A stretch of 64,000 nt of DNA from Synergistaceae bacterium (lineage in GTDB: Bacteria; Synergistota; Synergistia; Synergistales; Aminobacteriaceae). This document shows, piece by piece, positions 51,394 to 63,894 of the stretch (within the stretch, counting starts at the first letter, position 1; the number at the start of each line of letters is the position of its first letter). The notes below the pieces were generated by a model that was not told where the DNA came from, ran no database searches, and worked only from the letters and a program-made list of their open reading frames with translations. The DNA lies in contig JAFYBQ010000029.1 of the NCBI GenBank assembly GCA_017540085.1, positions 1-64,000 on the forward strand, in the 5' to 3' direction. Position numbers and translations under genes: made by a program.

Positions 51394-52329
51394 TTATTTC
51401 GACTTCACGAGGATTGCGCTAACGGGAGTTTTCTCCGGGAATGAGCTTGCCGGATACGCTGAGGGATTCTCGACTGCCGCGACAAGTCCCTTGAGTCCAA
51501 CGATGCCGATGTTGGCGGAGTCCTGCGCTACCGTTCCCGTAAGATTTCCTTCCTTCACCGACTGAATAGCGTCCGAGTCTCCGTCAGTCCCGCATACGTA
51601 AATTTCTCCGAGCTTGCCCGCGACTATTACGGCCTGAATCGCGCCCATCGCCATGCCGTCATTGCAGCAGTAAATAGCCTTCAGGTCCGGGAATTGCTGT
51701 ATCCACGTCATAGCGGTGTCCATTGCTATTTGCCTGTCCCAGTCGCACGACTTAGCCGCAACGATATTCATGCCTGCCTCAGTGAAAGCGGCCTTAGCAC
51801 CCTTTGCGCGGTCTTCTGATGACTGATTGCCCGCGAGTCCCTCAATGACTCCGACCTGTGCGCCTTTCGCGAGGAGTGAAGCGAGATATTCCCCGCCCAT
51901 GTGCCCGATCTGAATGTTGTCCGATGAGTCGAACCCTACGCAGACGGCTCCCTGACGCTTCATTTCGCCCTCGTCGAATCTTTCGTCAATGTTCCAGATT
52001 GTTATACCGGCCTCGTTTGCTTTCTTGACTCCGGCGATGAGGTTGACTCCGTTGCAGGGTGCTATGGCGATTCCCGCGTAGCTCCCGGAGTTAATGCAGT
52101 TCTCAAGAATCGCGAGCTGTCCCTCGTAGTCAATATCGCTCTGAGCTGCGAACATGTCGACATCAAGCCCGTTGTCTTTGGCGTACTTTGCTGTGCCGTC
52201 GTGCATTGTGCGCCAGAAATCGGAGTTTGTTGTCTTGAGGATTACGGCGTACTTTTTCGCGGCAATCGCGCCAGAAGCCATCGTAACGACAAGGCAGAGG
52301 GTTAATATTGCGGTGAGAAACTTTTTCAT
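51394..52329 (-). CDS. CUT2-type sugar ABC substrate-binding protein (operon 1)
   Basis: A 311-residue periplasmic binding protein of the ribose/galactose type (peripla_BP_4). Signal peptide KKFLTAILTLCLVVTMASGAIA; the fold is recognised by AAQSDIDYEGQLAILENCI, IEGLAGNQSSEDRAKG and CCNDGMAMGAI. The sugar is not defined. Start ATG 52329 follows AAAGGA. It is the last gene of the operon. Confidence 0.92.
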   Translation of the reverse strand: MKKFLTAILTLCLVVTMASGAIAAKKYAVILKTTNSDFWRTMHDGTAKYAKDNGLDVDMFAAQSDIDYEGQLAILENCINSGSYAGIAIAPCNGVNLIAGVKKANEAGITIWNIDERFDEGEMKRQGAVCVGFDSSDNIQIGHMGGEYLASLLAKGAQVGVIEGLAGNQSSEDRAKGAKAAFTEAGMNIVAAKSCDWDRQIAMDTAMTWIQQFPDLKAIYCCNDGMAMGAIQAVIVAGKLGEIYVCGTDGDSDAIQSVKEGNLTGTVAQDSANIGIVGLKGLVAAVENPSAYPASSFPEKTPVSAILVKSK

Positions 52330-52386
52330 TGTAACAAGTCCTTTCACGTTTTATTTTTCCTGAATCACTTTTGTGACTCGGATTCA

Positions 52387-53349
52387 CTATTTTCTTGATG
52401 ATGTTGATACAAGGTGATCCAATGTTACGGCGACAATAATCAATGCTCCCATCACAACTTTCTGCATTGAAGCGTCAATCATTAATACCGTCATTCCGTA
52501 GTTGATGATTCCGATGATGAGTCCTCCTGCGACAACGCCCGGAATTTTCCCGACTCCGCCGAAAAAGCTCGTGCCTCCGATAATCGTTGCGGCAATCGCG
52601 AAAGTCTCATAGCCTGTTCCCGCTGTAGGTGCCGCCGCGTTAAGCCGTCCCGTCAAGACAATTCCCGCAAGCCCCGCGCATGTCCCCGAAATCATGTAGA
52701 CGATCATTTGATGGCGGTGAACGTTAATTCCTGAGTACCACGCCGCCTCACGGTTACCGCCCAATGCGTAAAGATTCCTGCCGACCTTTGTCCGCGCCGT
52801 AACGAACCAGAGAATCGCCGCCGCAATCAGCGCGATTATTGCCCCGACAGGAAGGACGTTCCACAGTGTAGCGTTCATGAATTTCGAGAAGCCCGCCGGG
52901 AATCCGTAGACGCTTGACGAGTTTGACACAACGAGCATTAACCCAAAGTAAACCGTCTGCATACCAAGCGTAATGATGAAGGGGTGAAGCCCGGTCTTGT
53001 TGATCATGAATCCGTTGAGCGCACCGATTAGAGTCCCGCAGAGAACGCCCGCGATACATGCGATGACCCACGGAGTCCCGGCACGCATGAGAAGAGCGGA
53101 GCACATGCCAGTAAGACCGCAGGCCGCCGAGATTGAGAGGTCAATATATCCCAAGAGTATGGCGAAAAATTCACCGAGCGCGAGAAGGATATTCACGGCT
53201 GACTGTCTGAGAATCTGCGGGATTGATGTTGACGAGAACACCGCCGCAGGACGCGCCACAGCAAGAATGACGAGCAGTAGCAGAAGTATGCTTATTGTTC
53301 CGAATCTCTGCCAGAACGCCGCGAAATTAAACGCTTTTTTCTCACTCAT
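52387..53349 (-). CDS. CUT2-type sugar ABC permease (operon 1)
   Basis: A 320-residue RbsC-like permease with eight to ten segments; ILLGYIDLSISAACGLTGM and GGTSFFGGVGKIPGVVAGGLIIG are family marks. It forms a homodimer channel in the single-permease arrangement. It lies between ATPase and binding protein. Confidence 0.93.
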   Translation of the reverse strand: MSEKKAFNFAAFWQRFGTISILLLLLVILAVARPAAVFSSTSIPQILRQSAVNILLALGEFFAILLGYIDLSISAACGLTGMCSALLMRAGTPWVIACIAGVLCGTLIGALNGFMINKTGLHPFIITLGMQTVYFGLMLVVSNSSSVYGFPAGFSKFMNATLWNVLPVGAIIALIAAAILWFVTARTKVGRNLYALGGNREAAWYSGINVHRHQMIVYMISGTCAGLAGIVLTGRLNAAAPTAGTGYETFAIAATIIGGTSFFGGVGKIPGVVAGGLIIGIINYGMTVLMIDASMQKVVMGALIIVAVTLDHLVSTSSRK

Positions 53350-53367
53350 TGTAATTTTTCCTCCCTG

Positions 53368-54888
53368 TTATTCGCTCGTTGATATTCGCACAATTTCTTC
53401 TTCTGTTGCCGTGCGTCCGTCAAGAATCGCTTTAAGCTCCCCGCCGTGAAAGACTGCAATGCGGTCGCAAACGGATAATAACTCTGTCTGCTCTGACGAA
53501 ATCATGAGGACTCCCCGGCCATGTTCGGCAAGCCTCCGCATGAGTATGTATATTTCGCTCTTGCTGCCGATGTCGATTCCCTTTGTGGGTTCGTCAAAGA
53601 TGAGAATCTCACTGTCAGCCGCGAGCCATTTTCCGAGAATGACTTTCTGCTGATTTCCGCCGGAAAGGTCTACGGTCATTTGCTCCGGGCCTGTGCATTT
53701 CACGTTGAGGGCTGTAATCTGCTCGGAGGCCCATTTGTTTTCTTTTGACTCATTGAGGAGTCCGCCGAGTCCGCCTGCTGTTGACTCTTTGATGTACGGC
53801 TCAATAGAAATATTTTCCCTGCACGTGAAATTTTTTGCGAAGCCTAATTTACGCCTGTCCTCCGTGAGCATTCCGATTCCCTGCTTGATTGCCGCGTAGG
53901 GTTCGTGAATGTCAAGCTCCTTGCCCCGCAAGAAGACCTGCCCCGCGCTTTTCGGCACAGCTCCGAAAACGGCCTCCATTGTCTCAGTGCGTCCTGCACC
54001 AACAAGCCCTGCGAATCCGAGAATTTCCCCCTCGTGAAGCTGGAACGATACATTTCTGCAAGTCCCATCGGAGCGCGTTATGTTCCTTGCCTCGAATATC
54101 ACGGGATTTTTCACAAGCTCGTCCGCTGTCTTGTCCGCGAAATATGTACCCTTTATTTCACGCCCTACCATCAATTTTATGATGTCATCAAGCGAGAGAG
54201 AGTCCGCCGGGTAAGTGCCGACATATGTCCCGTCTTTGAGGACTGTTATTCGGTCGCCGATGGCTTTAAGCTCCTTCATTTTGTGGGAGATGTAGACGAT
54301 CCCGCAGCCCTTTGCTTTAAGCTCGCGGATTAATCCGTGGAGGCGGTCAACTTCTGAGGTTGTGAGAGATGTTGTAGGCTCATCGAGAACGATTACCCTT
54401 GCGCCGGAGACGAGAGCCTTTGCGATTTCGCAGAGCTGTTTTTCCGGGACTGCGAGATCCCCGACAAGGGTTGCGGGGTCATGGCGTATTCCGACTTGTT
54501 CGAGGACGGATTTTGCGCGGTCTTCCATTGCTTTGAAATCAACAACGGGAATGCCGAGAAATTTTTTCTCCGGGAGTTTTCCGACAAAGAGATTCTCAAG
54601 AATTGACAGCTCATTTATCACGCTCAACTCCTGATACACAATCGCTATTCCTTCTTCAACTGAAGTTTTTGTTGACAGCTGTGTGTATTCATGGCCGTTG
54701 CAGATAATTTTTCCTGAAGTCGGCTGATAGACTCCCGAAAGAATCTTCATGAGGGTAGATTTTCCCGCGCCATTTTCGCCGACAAGCACATGAACTTCAC
54801 CGGGCATAATGTCGAAGCTGATACCGTCAAGAGCTTTTACGCCGGGAAAAGTTTTCGTGATGCCGATCATACGAATTAAAGGCTCCAC
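53368..54888 (-). CDS. CUT2-type sugar ABC ATPase (operon 1)
   Basis: A 506-residue tandem ATPase of RbsA/MglA type. The N-terminal half has GENGAGKSTLMKILSG and VIVLDEPTTSLT; the second half has the usual altered Walker A (GLVGAGRTETM) and LSGGNQQKVILGKWL with ILIFDEPTKGID. First gene of the operon, transcribed from the promoter near 54959-54987. Confidence 0.94.
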   Translation of the reverse strand: MEPLIRMIGITKTFPGVKALDGISFDIMPGEVHVLVGENGAGKSTLMKILSGVYQPTSGKIICNGHEYTQLSTKTSVEEGIAIVYQELSVINELSILENLFVGKLPEKKFLGIPVVDFKAMEDRAKSVLEQVGIRHDPATLVGDLAVPEKQLCEIAKALVSGARVIVLDEPTTSLTTSEVDRLHGLIRELKAKGCGIVYISHKMKELKAIGDRITVLKDGTYVGTYPADSLSLDDIIKLMVGREIKGTYFADKTADELVKNPVIFEARNITRSDGTCRNVSFQLHEGEILGFAGLVGAGRTETMEAVFGAVPKSAGQVFLRGKELDIHEPYAAIKQGIGMLTEDRRKLGFAKNFTCRENISIEPYIKESTAGGLGGLLNESKENKWASEQITALNVKCTGPEQMTVDLSGGNQQKVILGKWLAADSEILIFDEPTKGIDIGSKSEIYILMRRLAEHGRGVLMISSEQTELLSVCDRIAVFHGGELKAILDGRTATEEEIVRISTSE

Positions 54889-54958
54889 AATATTGACTCC
54901 TCCTTCTGATTTTGATGACGTGGAAATGAGGAAATATTTTTATTATTTGGGTTTCTGT

Positions 54959-54987
54959 AATATAATTTAGCGGAAAAATTTTGTCAA
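54959..54987 (-). promoter_or_regulatory. Promoter of sugar ABC operon 1
   Basis: Minus-strand TTGACA (54987-54982), 17-base spacer and TATATT (54964-54959). The -10 overlaps the plus-strand TATAAT of the opposite operon. Confidence 0.65.
54961..54966 (+). promoter_or_regulatory. -10 box of the epimerase/sugar ABC operon 2
   Basis: TATAAT within CTGTAATATAATTTAG; the -35 is poor. The whole 149-base divergent region is AT-rich with inverted TTATT(T)GGG elements at about 54942 and 55004 that could be an operator. Confidence 0.4.
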
Positions 54988-55037
54988 TATTATTCATTTC
55001 CCAATAACAAAAATTTCATAAGGGGGTAAGTTGTTCC

Positions 55038-55913
55038 ATGAAGTATGGAATCTATGCGCCGTATTGGACTCATGAATGGACATCCGACTACGAATACTAC
55101 ATCCCGAAAGTTAAGCGTCTCGGCTTTGACATCCTCGAAATTTCCTGCGCCGCGTTCATGGAGAAGTACACGACAGAAGCGAAAATGTTAGACCTGCGGA
55201 AATGCGCCGAGGACAACGGAGTCATTCTTACGTCAGGTTACGGCCCGACACAGCAGCAGAATATCTGCTCAACCGATCCCGAAATCGTCAAACGCGCAAT
55301 GGCTTTCTTCCGGGAGCTTCTGCCGAAACTCAAGGTCATGAACATTCACATTCTCGGAGGCGGACTCTATTCCTATTGGCCGCTTGATATGAGTCTCCCG
55401 ATGGACAAGGAACGAGATTTAGAGGTCTCAATCCGTAACATGAAGGAGCTTGCGAAAGTCGCGGAAGACTGCGAGGTTACATTAGGGATGGAAGTCCTTA
55501 ACCGCTTTGAAGGCTACATGATTAACACGTGCGAGGAGTGCAAGAAATATATTGACGCAGTAGGAAGCCCCCGCGTGAAAATCATGCTTGACACTTTCCA
55601 CATGAATATCGAGGAAGACAACATGGCCGCGGCGGTTCGTTCTGCGGGAAAAGATTTATGTCATCTCCATTTGGGTGAACAGAATCGCAGAGTCCCCGGA
55701 AAAGGTACGATAGACTGGGCGGCACTCGGTCAGGCATTACGCGACATCAATTATCAGGGCGCGGCAGTGATGGAGCCTTTTGTGCTTTCGGGCGGGACAA
55801 TCGGAAAAGAGATTCGCGTGTGGCGTGATTTAGTACCTAACGCAACGGAAGAAATGTTAGACCGAGACGCAGAAGGCGCAGTAAGATTCGTGCGTCATGT
55901 ATTCGGGCTGTAA
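55038..55913 (+). CDS. Sugar epimerase of the ketose 3-epimerase (psicose/allulose) family
   Basis: A 291-residue TIM-barrel enzyme. Catalytic glutamates and metal ligands can be seen in LGMEVLNRFEGYMI (Glu), MLDTFHMNIEE (Asp/His), LHLGEQNRRVPGKG (Arg) and AVMEPFV (second Glu). It should interconvert ketoses such as fructose and psicose or tagatose. First gene of an operon with an ABC importer, so it probably feeds the imported sugar into metabolism. GGGGG lies upstream of the ATG. Confidence 0.88.
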   Translation: MKYGIYAPYWTHEWTSDYEYYIPKVKRLGFDILEISCAAFMEKYTTEAKMLDLRKCAEDNGVILTSGYGPTQQQNICSTDPEIVKRAMAFFRELLPKLKVMNIHILGGGLYSYWPLDMSLPMDKERDLEVSIRNMKELAKVAEDCEVTLGMEVLNRFEGYMINTCEECKKYIDAVGSPRVKIMLDTFHMNIEEDNMAAAVRSAGKDLCHLHLGEQNRRVPGKGTIDWAALGQALRDINYQGAAVMEPFVLSGGTIGKEIRVWRDLVPNATEEMLDRDAEGAVRFVRHVFGL

Positions 55914-55964
55914 AGGGATAAATTTCCCGTGAAGCAAAATTCTATCATCGGAGGAATCATCAGC

Positions 55965-57029
55965 ATGAAGAAAGTATTATCGGCGTTGCTTGTTGTTGCG
56001 GTGTTGTGTTCCGTGTCATTCGCGGCGGAACTTCCGAAAGGCTATCAGGTCAAGAACGGCTATAATCCGGCGGATTTCGTCTCAAAGAAAAATCCCTCAG
56101 AGTTTCGCATGGCCGTCATCGTGAAGGGAGTCGCGGACTGGTTCTCACGTCTTGAAGTCGGCGTAACGAAATTCGCAAAAGATTTCGGCGTTGACGCAAA
56201 AGTCCAGTTCCCGGCGACAACTGACGCGGCTTCACAGCTTGAGATTATCGACTCACTTCTCACACAGAATTATGACGCGATAATAGTCGTCCCGAATGAC
56301 TCCAGCGCGTTAGAGGAATCACTCGGCAACGCATTAGCTCACAAAATCGTCGTCATCGGTCATGAAGCGTCGAACCTCGTCAACTGTCTGTATGATACTG
56401 AGGCTTTCAACACGTCCCAATACGGCGAGGCAATGGCGGACGCTCTCGCGACAGCCACCGGCGCAAAAGGTACATATGCTCTCATGGTGGGCTACACGAC
56501 ATCAATAACTCACATGGAGTATGCGAAATTTGAGGCTGACTACATCAAGAAGAAATACCCCGAATTGAAGCTCCTCAATGACGAAGTGCCGACATGCGAG
56601 TCTCAGGAGTCAACAACAACAGCATACGAGCAGGCAAAGCAGATACTCAAGAGCAATCCTAATCTCGCTGGATTCATCTGCCACTGCTCAACAGACGGAG
56701 GCGGAATCGCTCAGGCCGCTGAAGAAATGGGACTCAAAGGAAAGGTGAAGATTGTTGCCGCCGGTGTGCCGTCATCATATGCGCGTGAGCTGAAAGACGG
56801 AGCAATCTACAGCGTTACAACGTGGGATCCTGCGCTTTCGGGATATGTCGCCTGCCTCACAGCGTACAACATTCTTACGGGCGTTCCTGTCGGCCAGGGG
56901 TCAGACCTGTCAGCAAAAGGAGCAGCACCGGGATATGAGTCAGTCAACCTCATTGTCGGCGATAATAACTGCTTAATCGGTAACGCTCCCTGCATAGGCA
57001 CAGCGGAGAATGTAGACAGCTTATTCTAG
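55965..57029 (+). CDS. CUT2-type sugar ABC substrate-binding protein (operon 2)
   Basis: A 354-residue binding protein with signal peptide KKVLSALLVVAVLCSVSFA and a periplasmic sugar-binding fold (SQLEIIDSLLTQNYDAIIVVPN; AGFICHCSTDGGGIAQAAEE). The size and the two-permease context resemble rhamnose RhaS or autoinducer LsrB types, though no further genes of those pathways are near. Start at 55965 follows GGAGGA by nine bases. Confidence 0.9.
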   Translation: MKKVLSALLVVAVLCSVSFAAELPKGYQVKNGYNPADFVSKKNPSEFRMAVIVKGVADWFSRLEVGVTKFAKDFGVDAKVQFPATTDAASQLEIIDSLLTQNYDAIIVVPNDSSALEESLGNALAHKIVVIGHEASNLVNCLYDTEAFNTSQYGEAMADALATATGAKGTYALMVGYTTSITHMEYAKFEADYIKKKYPELKLLNDEVPTCESQESTTTAYEQAKQILKSNPNLAGFICHCSTDGGGIAQAAEEMGLKGKVKIVAAGVPSSYARELKDGAIYSVTTWDPALSGYVACLTAYNILTGVPVGQGSDLSAKGAAPGYESVNLIVGDNNCLIGNAPCIGTAENVDSLF

Positions 57030-57126
57030 GGAAAATTCGAGACAGTGAAAATCTGAATGAATGTCCGTCCGTGCAAGCTATGAATTGTCCGGGCGGCATT
57101 TCTTTTTGTGAAAGGAGGAAAATTTT

Positions 57127-58617
57127 GTGCCTGACTATATTTTGAACTGCAGGGGAATCTGCAAATCTTTCGGCGGAGTCCATGCCCTGAGAAATGTTGA
57201 TTTGCGGGTACAGCGCGGTGAAGTACATTGCCTCGCGGGTGAGAACGGCTGCGGGAAATCGACAATCATCAAAGCTATCTCAGGATTCCAGCCGCAGGAC
57301 TCCGGCACAATTGAGTTCAACGGCAAGACGTACAAATCATTATCGCCCGTTCTTTCTATCGATTTAGGGATTCAGGTCATCTATCAGGATTTATCGGTCT
57401 TCCCAAATTTAACGGTGCAGGAAAATTTAGCCATTAACACCGTGCTTTCACACAAGACAAAAATCTACAATCACCGTCAGCAAAGAGAAATCGCAAAAAA
57501 GGTGATGGAGACTCTGAATCTGAATTTAGACCTCGATGTGAGAGTCGAGCAATTGCCGGTAGCGTCGAAACAGTTAATCGCAATCGCAAGAGCGTTATAC
57601 GCAAAGGCCAATTTCCTGATACTTGACGAGCCTACTACAGCATTAACACGCAAGGAAGTAGATCGACTCTTTGAGCTTATACGAGGACTCAAGGAAAAAG
57701 GGATGACCGTGCTTTTTGTCTCGCACAAACTTGATGAGATGTACGAGATTTCCGACAGCATAACGATAATGCGCTCAGGGGAAGCCGTCTACACAGGTGA
57801 AATGAAGAGTCTTAGCGAGGACGATTTCACGCGCTACATGACCGGCCATGACATAGCTTTTGACACGAACAAGCACCCGGAAGGACGAATCCGCAAAGAC
57901 GTTCCGCCCGCGCTTGAAGTGAAAGATTTGTCGGGGCCGGGATTCCGTCATGTGTCATTCTCGGTTCAGCCCGGCGAAATTCTCGGAATCACAGGTCAGT
58001 TAGGCTCAGGAAGAAGCGAGCTGTGCAATACACTTTTCGGAATCACAAAGTCAGAAGGCGGCAAAATTTCACGGGACGGAAAAGAGACCAGCATTCACTC
58101 CGTTAATGACGCGATACAGAACGGTATAGCCCTCGTTCCTGAAGACAGACTCACAGAAGGATTATTTTTGCCCGTCTCAATCATGGAGAATATCACGCTC
58201 GTAAACTACAAGGATTTCACACACAGCGGAATCCTCAGCCAGTCAGCGCAGGAGAAAAACTCTTCCGAATGGGTCAAAGAGATTCACGTGAAGACGGACG
58301 ATCATTTATTGCCCGTTCAGACGCTATCAGGCGGGAATCAGCAAAAAGTAGTCCTCGCTAAATGGCTGTCGACAAAGCCGAAAGTATTAATCCTCAACGG
58401 CCCGACAGTAGGAGTCGACATTGGCGCGAAATACGACATATACCAGCATTTGAGGGATCTTGCCTCGTCAGGAATGGCCGTGATTGTCGCGTCTGATGAC
58501 TTGGCCGAGGTTGTGAGGCTCTGCGACCGCTCAATAGTCATGCGCGGGGGCGTTATGTCGGGCGAGATTCCCGGCCATGAGCTTACAGCAGAAAATCTCA
58601 CGAAAGCCATAATGTAG
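57127..58617 (+). CDS. CUT2-type sugar ABC ATPase (operon 2)
   Basis: A 496-residue tandem ATPase. First half: GENGCGKSTIIKAIS, FLILDEPTTAL. Second half: GQLGSGRSELCNTLFG, SGGNQQKVVLAKWL and VLILNGPTVGVD, where the Asp-Glu of Walker B is Asn-Gly, so the second site is probably inactive. Start is GTG 57127 after AAAGGAGGAAA. Followed closely by two permeases. Confidence 0.93.
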   Translation: MPDYILNCRGICKSFGGVHALRNVDLRVQRGEVHCLAGENGCGKSTIIKAISGFQPQDSGTIEFNGKTYKSLSPVLSIDLGIQVIYQDLSVFPNLTVQENLAINTVLSHKTKIYNHRQQREIAKKVMETLNLNLDLDVRVEQLPVASKQLIAIARALYAKANFLILDEPTTALTRKEVDRLFELIRGLKEKGMTVLFVSHKLDEMYEISDSITIMRSGEAVYTGEMKSLSEDDFTRYMTGHDIAFDTNKHPEGRIRKDVPPALEVKDLSGPGFRHVSFSVQPGEILGITGQLGSGRSELCNTLFGITKSEGGKISRDGKETSIHSVNDAIQNGIALVPEDRLTEGLFLPVSIMENITLVNYKDFTHSGILSQSAQEKNSSEWVKEIHVKTDDHLLPVQTLSGGNQQKVVLAKWLSTKPKVLILNGPTVGVDIGAKYDIYQHLRDLASSGMAVIVASDDLAEVVRLCDRSIVMRGGVMSGEIPGHELTAENLTKAIM

Positions 58618-60789: not shown

Positions 60790-62674
60790 GTGAACAGTTT
60801 ATTACGGTTTTGCACGACAGACACCGCGCAGATTTTTGCGGCATGGGTTTTGTCGACAGCACTTTTCGCCGCGCTGATAACCTACATATCAAAGCACCCG
60901 CATAAAAGAACGCTCCCGCTAAAGATATTTTTTGCGGCCATGTTCATTGGAGGGACGGCAATGTACTGTGCATTCCATTGGCTAGAGATTCAACAGGTTC
61001 TCGGCGGCCATCTTGAGAATAAGAGCCTTGACTGGGTGAAAAGCGGCAATGCTTCAGCCCTCGACTATATTCTTTACGTGATAATGGTATCTGTTATGGA
61101 CGTAGGCATGATGTTTTCCGGACGTGGCAACAGCACTGTATTCTACAATCTCCCTGTCTCAAGAAATCCGGCGGCTGTGCTGTTGTTCTGGATGATTCAC
61201 CTTGTCGCCTTTTACACCGCCGCAAGCGCACTGCTTATACGTTTCGGCAATGACCTTCTCATGTGGCTGAGGATTACGAGTCATCGATACGCGAATCGGG
61301 CGGGGTTGTATGTTCGGGCAATGACGCGCTGAAGGCTTCCCCGGAATTTCTGCGGAGGATACGAATAAAGCCGGGCGGGATAAATTTCCGTCTCTTTGCC
61401 CTGTCAGATGAGTACGACAAAAATATGCAGTACGCCCGGAATATGTCCGCGTCCCTAGAGAAAATCGGCGTACTTCCTGAGCAGACCGGGCTTATTCTCT
61501 TGGGTACTGACGAATGGAAAGGCATGTTTTTTCAGGCGGAAGGGAATCAGTACGGCTACGGGAGCGTTATTTCTTTCGATGAGTACGAGATGAGCGCACG
61601 CCTCCTGATGAACAAATACCCTCTCTGCAATGCCATAAATTTTGACGCTGACGGCCGGGCGGCTGAGGATACAGATGTCCTTATAGTCGGTTTCGGGCGA
61701 ATGGGTCATGAAGTCCTGCGGCAGGTCATCGCTAATGGACAGTTTGAAGGCAGCAGCTTCCACGCAACTGTTTACGATCCCAATTTTGAACACCGTTCGG
61801 GCTTCCTGAAGTCCCAGTATCCGAACATGTTCGTGAAGTACAATATAGATTTCGAGCCGCAGAACGCGAGAGGCAGCAAAATTTTCCGCTTCATGGAAGA
61901 TCACGCCGCGAGCCTGAAATACATAGCGGTGTGCATTGAGGATCGCTACACAGCAAGGGACATAGCCGTTCATATGGTTGACCGACTTCGCAAAATAGGC
62001 CGCCCTGTCAATGTTTACACCTGCGACTCGAAAAGCGTGCGCTGTTATTCACAGAACGCGGAAGAGTGCGCTATACACTGGATATATGACTCGGATCTGC
62101 TTTATTCGGGAGAGCTTGACGGGTACGCCAGAGAGCTTAATCACGCCTACGCCGGGGGCAGCAGTGCCAATGAAGACTGGAAGAAGTGCGGTTACTTTGA
62201 CAGGATGAGCAGCCGCGCCAGTGTCGACTATCTCATACCCCTTATACGGAAAATCACGCCGGACTCAGCTTCAGCGGAATTAACCCCGGAACAGCGGGAA
62301 AATTTAGCGCGTAGCGAGCATCTCAGGTGGTGCGCGTTCACTACACGTTCGGCTATGATGTTATGGACAAGGAAGAATTTGCGCGGCGTGTGAAAGAACG
62401 CCAGAGAGAAATAACAGAGCGCGGAAAATCATCCATAAGGCCGACAAAGAACACAGAGTCAATGACTCACGCCTGCCTCGTAGACTGGGACGAGCTTGAC
62501 GAAATTTCGCGGATAGAGAACTCTGTAACAAACGGCACTAAGGACTACAAAGACTCCGACAGGGGCAATGTCGATATGGTAATGAAGATTCTGTGCGCTG
62601 AATCGGAGAAAGCCGGAGAAATTTCAGGGGGTCTGCTATGGAAAGCAAAGGCTTCAAATACTATGCGTTCATAA
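60790..62674 (+). pseudogene. Broken membrane / TrkA-N / RyR-domain gene
   Basis: One gene broken by two frameshifts. Part 1 (60790-61310) has three to four transmembrane segments (FAAWVLSTALFAALITYI; VLLFWMIHLVAFYTAASALL). Part 2 (about 61310-62339, ending ENLARSEHLRWCAF) contains an NAD-binding TrkA-N-like fold (DTDVLIVGFGRMGHEVLRQVI). Part 3 (62339-62674) continues as HYTFGYDVMDKEEF and then KNTESMTHACLVDWDEL, completing a prokaryotic RyR domain. Each shift is compatible with one lost base (frame 1 to 0 near 61310; frame 0 to 2 near 62339, where TTCAC probably was TTCCAC). Such proteins accompany TIR and SLOG genes in nucleotide-signalled immunity. The TIR fragment follows immediately. Confidence 0.82.
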
Positions 62675-62745
62675 GCTACAGCCACAAGGATAAAAAGATT
62701 GCCAGGAAGCTACAGAAGTACCTAGAACATTATCACCTTCCGTAA
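62638..62745 (+). pseudogene. TIR-domain protein, N-terminal remnant
   Basis: ATG 62638 follows CAGGGGG and encodes 35 residues: MESKGFKYYAFISYSHKDKK, then IARKLQKYLEHYHLP, the first strand and helix of a TIR domain (YDAFISYSHKD motif). A TAA follows, but the same frame goes on with KLLASRPDLSKKTQPYIQG, the normal continuation of such proteins, until a second stop near 62809. The catalytic Glu region is lost. TIR domains in defence degrade NAD+ or make cyclic ADP-ribose signals. Confidence 0.8.
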
Positions 62746-62811
62746 AAACTTCTGGCATCTCGCCCTGATCTGTCCAAAAAAACTCAGCCCTATATTCAGG
62801 GGTGAGTCTGA

Positions 62812-63015
62812 GCGCAGGAAAATGGATTACACGTACAAATTCACGACACTGCGCGGGAAGGGCATAAAGTTTTCTGGAAGATATACACTCCCCGAAAGCA
62901 GGCTGTTGACTTCTACGCGGGCGGGGACGGGGATATATCCTACGCGCTTCCGTATGACATCAACGCGGCGTATGACTCCGATGGCAACAAAACAAAAGAG
63001 GAATGGGCAAAATAA
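62812..63015 (+). pseudogene. Unidentified C-terminal protein fragment
   Basis: An open frame without a start, preceded by a stop codon at 62809-62811, encodes about 67 residues that look like the end of a real protein (GLHVQIHDTAREGHKVFWKI, AVDFYAGGDGDISYALPYDI) and ends in TAA. I do not recognise the family. It may be the end of the gene that followed or was fused to the TIR domain. Confidence 0.5.
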
Positions 63016-63132: not shown

Positions 63133-63894
63133 CTAATTCTTGTGGCTGACTGCCTCGTCTCTTGCTTCAGGCTTCAGAATCCACTGCCCCCAGTCAAAAT
63201 GAATCAGTCCGCTCACAATATACAGCGCGAAAAGGAACAGCGGCGCACCCTTCTTCAGGAACACGAACGACAGCACCATCATCGAGAACAGCGCAAGGCA
63301 TTTCACACCGTCAGCAGTCTTCTTAGTCAGCTTCTTCATGTTCGCGTAGGGTATGCTCGAAATCATAAGGAATCCCGTAAATGCCATCACCCCGGCCATG
63401 ACCCACGCAGGAAGATTCACACCCGCTATCACGAATGACGACACAAACAGCCCCCCCGCAGGACACGGAAGCCCCTGAAACGGCCCGGGTACATGCACAA
63501 CGTTGAACCGCGCAAGCCTCAGTGCCACGCAAAGCGCAAAGAAACACGCCACCACAACGCCCGCAATATTCAGACTCCGCGCCGAGACCTGATACAGCAA
63601 TATTGCCGGAGCAACTCCGAAACTCACGAGATCCGCAAGGCTGTCGAACTCCATCCCGAACTGTGAGCCGCCGCCAAGCATACGCGCAACTTTCCCGTCA
63701 AAACCGTCAAATATCACCGCGAAAAACACAAGCCACGCCGCAGGAATATACCGCCCGTGAAGAGTCATTATCAGCGAGAAGAGTCCGCAGAGAAGATTCC
63801 CGCTTGTTACCATATTCGGAAGTATGTGCCTGAACTCCATAGGCTTCTTCCCTTTCCTGCCCATTATCCGCCGTATTCTCAGAAAATCCTTCAA
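63133..63894 (-). CDS. pssA: CDP-diacylglycerol-serine O-phosphatidyltransferase
   Basis: A 253-residue membrane enzyme making phosphatidylserine from CDP-diacylglycerol and serine. The CDP-alcohol signature appears as DGFDGKVARMLGGGSQFGMEFDSLAD (D-G-x-x-D-G-x-x-A-R-x8-G-x3-D-x3-D). Six to eight transmembrane segments follow. The first start is a TTG at 63894 that overlaps the psd stop; the ATG at residue 11 (MGRKGKK) is an alternative. With psd it makes phosphatidylethanolamine. Confidence 0.95.
   Translation of the reverse strand: MKDFLRIRRIMGRKGKKPMEFRHILPNMVTSGNLLCGLFSLIMTLHGRYIPAAWLVFFAVIFDGFDGKVARMLGGGSQFGMEFDSLADLVSFGVAPAILLYQVSARSLNIAGVVVACFFALCVALRLARFNVVHVPGPFQGLPCPAGGLFVSSFVIAGVNLPAWVMAGVMAFTGFLMISSIPYANMKKLTKKTADGVKCLALFSMMVLSFVFLKKGAPLFLFALYIVSGLIHFDWGQWILKPEARDEAVSHKN

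What the first reader, a model, noticed from the sequence alone, without database searches (positions are those of the whole stretch)
60790..63015. Wrecked RyR / TrkA-N / TIR locus, a probable former immunity module
Seen: a transmembrane plus NAD-binding plus RyR gene broken at about 61310 and 62339, followed at once by a TIR start (YYAFISYSHKD) with an early stop and then an unknown C-terminal fragment. Known: prokaryotic RyR and TIR domains occur together in nucleotide-signalled conflict systems (Burroughs and Aravind work). Inferred: a membrane RyR sensor/effector paired with a TIR enzyme. The intact form in relatives could be an under-described two-gene defence system.
Basis: partly seen in the sequence, partly recalled or inferred. 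Interest (0 to 1): 0.75.

Follow-up and report, generated by a model that had tools for sequence, protein, structure and literature searches.

The report
Broken TIR–RyR two-gene signalling module
A gut bacterium carries the wreck of a two-gene alarm system whose intact copies in its relatives pair a Toll-like (TIR) enzyme with a membrane protein ending in a ryanodine-receptor-type nucleotide pocket, which may be a new bacterial use of the signal chemistry long linked to animal ryanodine receptors.

Summary
Window 60790-63015 is the wreck of two adjacent genes. The first encodes three transmembrane helices, two Rossmann/RCK-like domains and a divergent RyR domain. The second encodes TIR, a TM helix and a repeat ectodomain. 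The damage includes a ~100 bp deletion and loss of most of the TIR domain, so it is not a base-calling artefact.

Fifteen of 43 genomes of the genus hold the RyR gene. In 11 of 13 informative loci a TIR gene (once a TIR-like DUF4062 gene) follows directly. TIR-RyR and DUF4062-RyR pairs recur on Butyrivibrio and Arcobacter plasmids. Intact copies of the partner TIR subfamily occur only in genomes with the RyR gene (12/12, Fisher p=3e-8, uncorrected for kinship). The two RyR-less genomes with this TIR keep only broken copies.

The residues by which phage RyR proteins bind cyclic ADP-ribose (H, W, H, D) are conserved. Most likely the TIR makes an ADP-ribose-type signal that the membrane RyR protein reads: Thoeris-like logic with an effector not found in the models searched. 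Signal, membrane action and antiphage role are inferred, not shown.

The parts
60790..61296 (+). Broken gene A, piece 1: membrane part of the RyR protein (three predicted TM helices)
   Evidence: 44-59% identical to the N-terminal part of intact homologues; TM prediction on the intact homologues
61257..61300 (+). Break 1: ~30-35 codons of the first Rossmann/RCK-like domain missing and frame changed
   Evidence: tblastn of intact relatives: frame +2 hit ends at residue 209 of L019, frame +1 resumes at residue 242
61263..62336 (+). Broken gene A, piece 2: two Rossmann/RCK-like domains and the first RyR helix with the EHLRW motif
   Evidence: 57-72% identical to 12 intact homologues
62337..62341 (+). 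Break 2: reading-frame change inside the RyR domain
   Evidence: frame +1 hit ends and frame +3 hit starts at consecutive residues of the intact relatives
62339..62674 (+). Broken gene A, piece 3: rest of the RyR domain (KHxCLVxWDEL and YKxxDR motifs), running into the start of gene B
   Evidence: 46-69% identical to intact homologues
62638..62742 (+). Broken gene B, start of the TIR domain (YYAFISYSHKD), then an in-frame stop
   Evidence: 57-69% identical to the first ~50 residues of intact partner TIRs; TIR_2 E=6e-4 on 35 aa, below the curated cut-off
62743..62827 (+). Remnant of the next part of the TIR domain, partly frame-shifted; beyond it ~180 codons (rest of TIR, TM helix) are deleted
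   Evidence: alignment to residues 45-65 of the L022/L024 partners
62804..62979 (+).
   Evidence: match residues 242-260 and 303-341 of the L024 partner, E=1e-4 and 3e-5; the first also matches a second TIR protein of L026

Best explanation
The locus is the decayed remains of a two-gene signalling module. Gene B encodes a TIR enzyme that in its usual form is anchored by one TM helix and carries a variable ectodomain predicted to lie outside the cytoplasm. When triggered, the TIR domain cleaves NAD+ and releases an ADP-ribose-type (perhaps cyclic ADPR) signal. Gene A encodes a three-TM protein with tandem Rossmann/RCK-like domains and a C-terminal RyR domain that binds this signal and switches the membrane part, probably disturbing ion balance or the membrane, as an abortive-type response. 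Shown here: the pairing, its recurrence across phyla, co-occurrence and co-decay of the two genes, conservation of the RyR ligand residues and of the putative TIR catalytic glutamate, and topology predictions. Inferred: the chemistry, the direction of signalling, the membrane action and the antiphage role. In this genome the module is dead.
For: Adjacency: the partner directly follows the RyR gene (gap -14 to +39 bp) in 11 of 13 informative loci of the genus, counting the broken window copy. Partner types differ (TIR-TM-Sel1, TIR-TM with other repeats, TIR-NB-ARC-TPR, TIR-Sel1, DUF4062-STAND-TPR), so this is not mere inherited synteny. In G001, G013, G018 and G025 the only TIR_2 gene of the genome is this neighbour. 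Other phyla: Butyrivibrio plasmid, TIR gene then homologue (35% identity, E=7e-116); Arcobacter plasmid, TrkA_N and RyR genes then DUF4062; DUF4062 is a TIR-like NADase (PMC13174449). Co-occurrence: RyR family in 15 of 43 genus genomes, partner TIR subfamily in 14, both in 12, p=2e-6; intact TIR 12 of 12, p=3e-8; TIRs of other kinds show no association, p=0.94. RyR domain: profile match to phage RyR proteins including RyDEP, E=5e-7, with the columns of RyDEP H75, W78 and H100 invariant in 14 of 14 and D117 matched by a nearby conserved D; match to a canonical TrkA_N-RyR protein, E=2e-9. RyDEP-family proteins bind or cleave 2'/3'cADPR, and these residues contact the ligand in RyDEP (PMC13232231). 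Putative catalytic Glu kept in all ten TIRs aligned. Topology: positive-rich flank before the partner TM; the ectodomain of one partner exists in the window's genome as a separate protein with a signal-peptide-like N-terminus (40% identity). The orphan in G019 has a degenerate RyR domain and its genome has no TIR_2 gene.
Against: No biochemistry or phage assay. The genus RyR domains miss the Pfam cut-off, and the low-confidence C-terminal model found no RyR fold. At the D117 column the automatic alignment puts N in all but one member; the match to the conserved YKxxDR aspartate needs a ~14-residue insertion. G031 keeps a solo RyR gene (its TIRs are elsewhere). Most genus loci lie among housekeeping genes rather than defence islands. 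No ion-channel Pfam model was matched. The co-occurrence test ignores phylogenetic relatedness.
Confidence: 0.6

Rival explanations
1. The RyR protein is an off-switch or buffer: it binds or hydrolyses the TIR's signal (as phage RyDEP does) and protects the host from its own TIR rather than executing a response.
For: RyDEP's catalytic pair H75/D117 appears conserved; RyDEP cleaves 2'/3'cADPR (PMC13232231); an antidote would also explain why intact partner TIRs occur only with the RyR gene.
Against: Phage sponge-type homologues keep the same residues without cleaving, so the residues do not show catalysis. A degrader would not need three TM helices and two RCK-like domains. If it were an antidote, its loss in G000 should be harmful with an active TIR, yet G000 keeps one apparently intact TIR on C19.
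Confidence: 0.15
2. The pair is a receptor-type signalling module of ordinary physiology (osmotic, envelope or host contact sensing through the TIR ectodomain), not phage defence.
For: The usual TIR partner has a predicted extracytoplasmic repeat domain, and RCK-like domains are typical of ion homeostasis (general knowledge). Several loci lie among housekeeping genes.
Against: Patchy presence (15 of 43 genomes), varied partners, plasmid copies, decay in this genome, a type I R-M neighbour at G095 and a similar gene at G016 and a distant RyR homologue overlapping Wadjet jetA look more like accessory conflict genes.
Confidence: 0.22
3. The breaks are sequencing or assembly errors in a draft genome and the module is intact.
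For: The window lies in a draft genome of 42 contigs. Amino-acid divergence of piece 2 is no higher than between intact copies.
Against: A ~100 bp deletion, a frame change, an in-frame stop and loss of ~180 codons in a second gene cannot be base-calling errors; the genome also has a second broken TIR on C12.
Confidence: 0.02

Closest known systems
Thoeris with TM-macro ThsA (PMC11204291)
   Same: Two genes: a TIR protein that makes an ADPR-type nucleotide, and a membrane protein with a nucleotide-binding domain proposed to act on the membrane.
   Different: The receptor is an RyR domain on RCK-like Rossmann domains, not a macro domain. The TIR partner is usually membrane-anchored with a repeat ectodomain, whereas ThsB (from general knowledge) is typically a small soluble protein.
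Thoeris with SIR2-SLOG ThsA (type I)
   Same: TIR plus cADPR-type receptor in one operon.
   Different: No SIR2 or SLOG domain; the presumed effector is a membrane protein.
Phage RyDEP family (PMC13232231)
   Same: RyR (R12-type) domain with the same H, W, H and, probably, D ligand residues.
   Different: RyDEP is a single-domain phage counter-defence protein; here a divergent RyR domain is the C-terminal part of a host membrane protein encoded next to a TIR gene.
Swarozyc / DUF4062 NADases (PMC13174449)
   Same: TIR-like NADase; DUF4062 takes the TIR's place next to the RyR gene in L030 and in Arcobacter.
   Different: [quoted passage not shown] no RyR partner is mentioned in the main text.
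RCK channel gating rings (CASTOR, Slo1/BK)
   Same: TM part followed by tandem RCK-like Rossmann domains; best Foldseek matches of the weak full-length model.
   Different: No recognised pore filter; extra C-terminal RyR domain; model too weak to claim homology.

Membership tests
Thoeris | ThsB: TIR-domain protein encoded in the operon | tested here: met
   Five of the six TIR partners in the genus first scanned pass the ThsB_TIR cut-off (PF08937), as does the L066 partner; the Butyrivibrio TIR does not
Thoeris | ThsA effector: SIR2-SLOG or TM-macro | tested here: not met
   No SIR2, SLOG or macro match in the RyR proteins; PADLOC finds no model for them
Thoeris | TIR makes an ADPR-type signal that activates the effector | not testable with these tools
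   Putative catalytic Glu conserved in all ten TIRs aligned; no assay
Thoeris | Protection from phage | not testable with these tools
   Needs phage challenge
RyR domain (PF02026) | Pfam match over the curated cut-off | tested here: not met
   No match in the genus homologues scanned or in Butyrivibrio; the Arcobacter relative matches at 40.2 bits, cut-off 27.4
RyR domain (PF02026) | Profile homology with known RyR domains and ligand residues H, W, H, D | tested here: met
   hhalign E=5e-7 with phage and bacterial RyR proteins, H/W/H columns 14 of 14; D by eye across an insertion; E=2e-9 with a TrkA_N-RyR protein
RyR domain (PF02026) | RyR fold | tested here: inconclusive
   Model pLDDT 64, no significant fold match
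Double-RCK ion channel | Tandem RCK-like Rossmann domains after a TM region | tested here: inconclusive
   Three TMs and Rossmann motifs; Foldseek CASTOR/Slo1 rings E=3e-5 on a pLDDT 52 model
Double-RCK ion channel | Pore helix and selectivity filter | tested here: not met
   No ion-channel Pfam match; the conserved VxDVGxMFxG segment is not a filter I recognise
Swarozyc | DUF4062 NADase domain | tested here: not met
   The window partner is TIR, not DUF4062; DUF4062 only in L030 and Arcobacter

The most novel reading that the evidence does not exclude
Intact copies form a bacterial receptor pathway built like a Toll receptor wired to a ryanodine-receptor-type membrane protein. A TIR enzyme with an extracytoplasmic repeat ectodomain senses a threat, makes a cyclic ADP-ribose isomer inside the cell, and gates a membrane protein through an RyR domain. 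That would be a prokaryotic relative of the long-disputed cADPR-RyR link in animals. One RyR effector may serve several TIR receptors in a genome.
Probability: 0.3. Interest if true: 0.95.

Novelty: new variant of a known kind. Interest (0 to 1): 0.74.

Why it matters
If true, this gives host-encoded RyR domains in bacteria a job: reading the TIR's nucleotide signal. It would add a host-side counterpart to the phage RyR proteins that sponge or cut such signals, and it would make the old question of whether cADPR acts on RyR domains testable in a small bacterial protein. It would also add a membrane effector and a receptor-like TIR architecture to TIR immunity.

Tried and rejected
Pfam, NCBIfam and PADLOC on the pieces and on intact proteins: no RyR or known-effector match, so sequence bridges were used instead.

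Profile search of solved structures: mostly glycine-motif matches to GAPDH, none significant.

Viral contigs and phage genomes: no relatives of the full protein.

AlphaFold models had few usable sequences: pLDDT 52 and 64. Foldseek gave CASTOR/Slo1 gating rings for the first (suggestive only) and nothing significant for the second.

A search centred on the Butyrivibrio record was not possible.

Empty-site test at pssA: the 3' flank of pssA is not conserved among the eight genomes inspected and none shows the window's upstream flank there, so there is no clean empty site.

dN/dS: synonymous sites are saturated; amino-acid divergence of piece 2 (pN 0.17-0.24) equals that between intact copies (0.18-0.25), so the break looks recent and the intact family is under purifying selection.

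Sequencing-error reading: rejected on the size of the deletions.

Full report
WHAT IS IN THE WINDOW. Between the sugar-ABC permease gene (ends 60590) and pssA (63133-63894, minus strand) lie pieces of two genes. Searching the region with intact homologues shows one ~640 aa protein in three consecutive frames: 60790 to ~61290, 61263-62336 and 62339-62674. Between pieces 1 and 2 some 30-35 residues, including the first Rossmann glycine motif, are missing, so break 1 is a deletion rather than a point frameshift. Break 2 is a frame change inside the RyR domain. The second gene starts at 62638, where the first gene's frame is still open; in the intact pairs of the genus the gap is -14 to +39 bp. 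Its TIR frame stops after 35 codons, is traceable to about residue 65, then jumps to residues 242-260 and 303-341 of the partner found in L024.

INTACT RELATIVES. The window's genome has no other copy. Of 188 Synergistota genomes, 16 hold the family: 15 of the 43 species held for this genus (goat-gut MAGs where named) and one genome of another family. In the genus, where the downstream gene can be read, a TIR or DUF4062 gene follows directly on the same strand in L019, L021, L022, L024, L025, L026, L027, L030, L065 and L066 and in the window; only L028 and L029 lack it. L020, L023 and L031 stop at contig ends. The partner's C-terminus varies: Sel1 repeats, other repeats, NB-ARC plus TPR, DUF4062 plus TPR. 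In four genomes the neighbour is the only TIR_2 gene. A back-of-envelope binomial for 11 of 13 with up to nine TIRs per 2000 genes gives about 1e-21; this ignores shared ancestry, but flanks and partner types differ between most loci.

OTHER PHYLA. A full-length homologue (35% identity) lies on a Butyrivibrio fibrisolvens plasmid directly downstream of a TIR gene, 320 bp away. An Arcobacter plasmid has TrkA_N and RyR genes followed by a DUF4062 gene. DUF4062 has been reported as a TIR-like NADase (PMC13174449).

CO-OCCURRENCE AND CO-DECAY. With the partner TIR as query, 14 of 43 genus genomes have this subfamily; 12 of them hold the RyR gene (p=2e-6). The two that do not, G010 and G029, hold only broken copies, so intact copies are 12 of 12 with RyR (p=3e-8). 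Genomes with only other kinds of TIR show no association (p=0.94). In G019 the orphan RyR gene has lost the ligand motif and the genome has no TIR_2 gene. In the window's own genome the RyR gene is broken, and besides the window TIR a second TIR gene (C12) is split over three frames, while the one on C19 is still open. Several genomes have one RyR gene and several TIRs (G030, G031), which suggests one receptor for several TIR sensors (inference).

IS IT AN RyR DOMAIN? Pfam does not call it in the genus. Four results do. (1) The Butyrivibrio homologue matches the Arcobacter protein annotated as RyR, E=7e-4, and the reverse search E=3e-5; the Arcobacter protein passes the Pfam cut-off. (2) The C-terminal profile aligns with a profile of phage and bacterial RyR proteins, E=5e-7, with RyDEP's H75, W78 and H100 columns identical in 14 of 14 family members. 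(3) RyDEP's D117 is best matched by the conserved aspartate of YKxxDR after a ~14 residue insertion; the automatic alignment puts N there, so this step is by eye. (4) The family profile aligns over 348 columns with a TrkA_N-RyR protein of G086, E=2e-9; that gene overlaps the gene in the jetA position of a Wadjet operon (jetC identified by PADLOC). RyDEP binds and cleaves 2'/3'cADPR and its relatives bind or sequester them (PMC13232231).

MEMBRANE AND TOPOLOGY. The RyR proteins have three clear TM helices with a basic TM1-TM2 loop, then two Rossmann domains and the RyR domain, predicted cytoplasmic. A fourth conserved hydrophobic segment (VxDVGxMFxG) before the last TM helix might be a pore helix, but no filter is recognised. 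A weak full-length model (pLDDT 52) is closest to CASTOR and Slo1 double-RCK rings, which is suggestive only. The usual TIR partner has RERKKR-type residues before a single TM helix, predicting the repeat domain outside. In the window's own genome a homologue of the L066 ectodomain (residues 446-803) is a separate protein with a signal-peptide-like start, directly after a TIR-TM gene. The adjacent partners in L026, L027 and L030 lack a TM helix, so this receptor layout is common, not universal. In G030 an in-frame chimera joins TIR, a stretch of the RyR protein's TM region and a second TIR-TM-Sel1, which looks like a fossil of adjacency in both orders.

MECHANISM. Best reading: the TIR partner makes an ADPR-type signal that the RyR domain of the membrane partner reads, switching its TM part. 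This is Thoeris-like logic (compare TM-macro ThsA, PMC11204291). It is not filed as Thoeris because the defining ThsA domains were tested and not found. The main rivals are a signal-degrading off-switch and a non-immune signalling role.

LIMITS. No reads, no assays; other phyla were reachable only through plasmids. No match was found in PADLOC 2.0.0, and none of the papers found here describes a TIR plus TM-RCK-RyR pair, but the two Burroughs/Aravind papers I tried, which could describe it, are not held.

Noticed in passing
L068:4485-6197 (G030 C23; same gene on C24, L069:5292-7004): In-frame chimera: TIR, then a stretch of the RyR protein's TM region, then a second TIR-TM-Sel1. Looks like a collapsed TIR-RyR-TIR array.
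   Followed up: partly
L038:10946-12820 (G086 C321): A canonical TrkA_N-RyR gene overlaps the gene in the jetA position of a Wadjet operon (jetC identified by PADLOC); the RyR protein itself matches no PADLOC model.
   Followed up: partly
L040:659-5817 (G008) and L041:776-5645 (G009): Short ~92 aa RyR genes follow what look by eye like a PP2C-type phosphatase gene and a kinase-like gene. Their relative L033 from the same genus is very close to animal RyR repeats. A separate host RyR context in the same genus.
   Followed up: no
L094:3725-6292 (G000 C19): Open TIR-TM gene followed by a separate signal-peptide-like protein homologous to the C-terminal ectodomain of the single-chain L066 TIR protein: a natural split of the receptor.
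   Followed up: partly
L095:4314-6375 (G000 C12): A second broken TIR-TM-Sel1 gene in the window's genome, split over three frames.
   Followed up: yes
window 52001-57250: Sugar ABC block 91% identical to G031 (L028:1-5243), where it also lies near the RyR gene but in the opposite orientation. Rearrangement around a shared site.
   Followed up: no
3' flank of pssA (window 63133-63894): The gene next to pssA varies among the eight related genomes inspected; in G031 a TIR gene lies about 5 kb away. Possible hotspot for accessory genes.
   Followed up: partly
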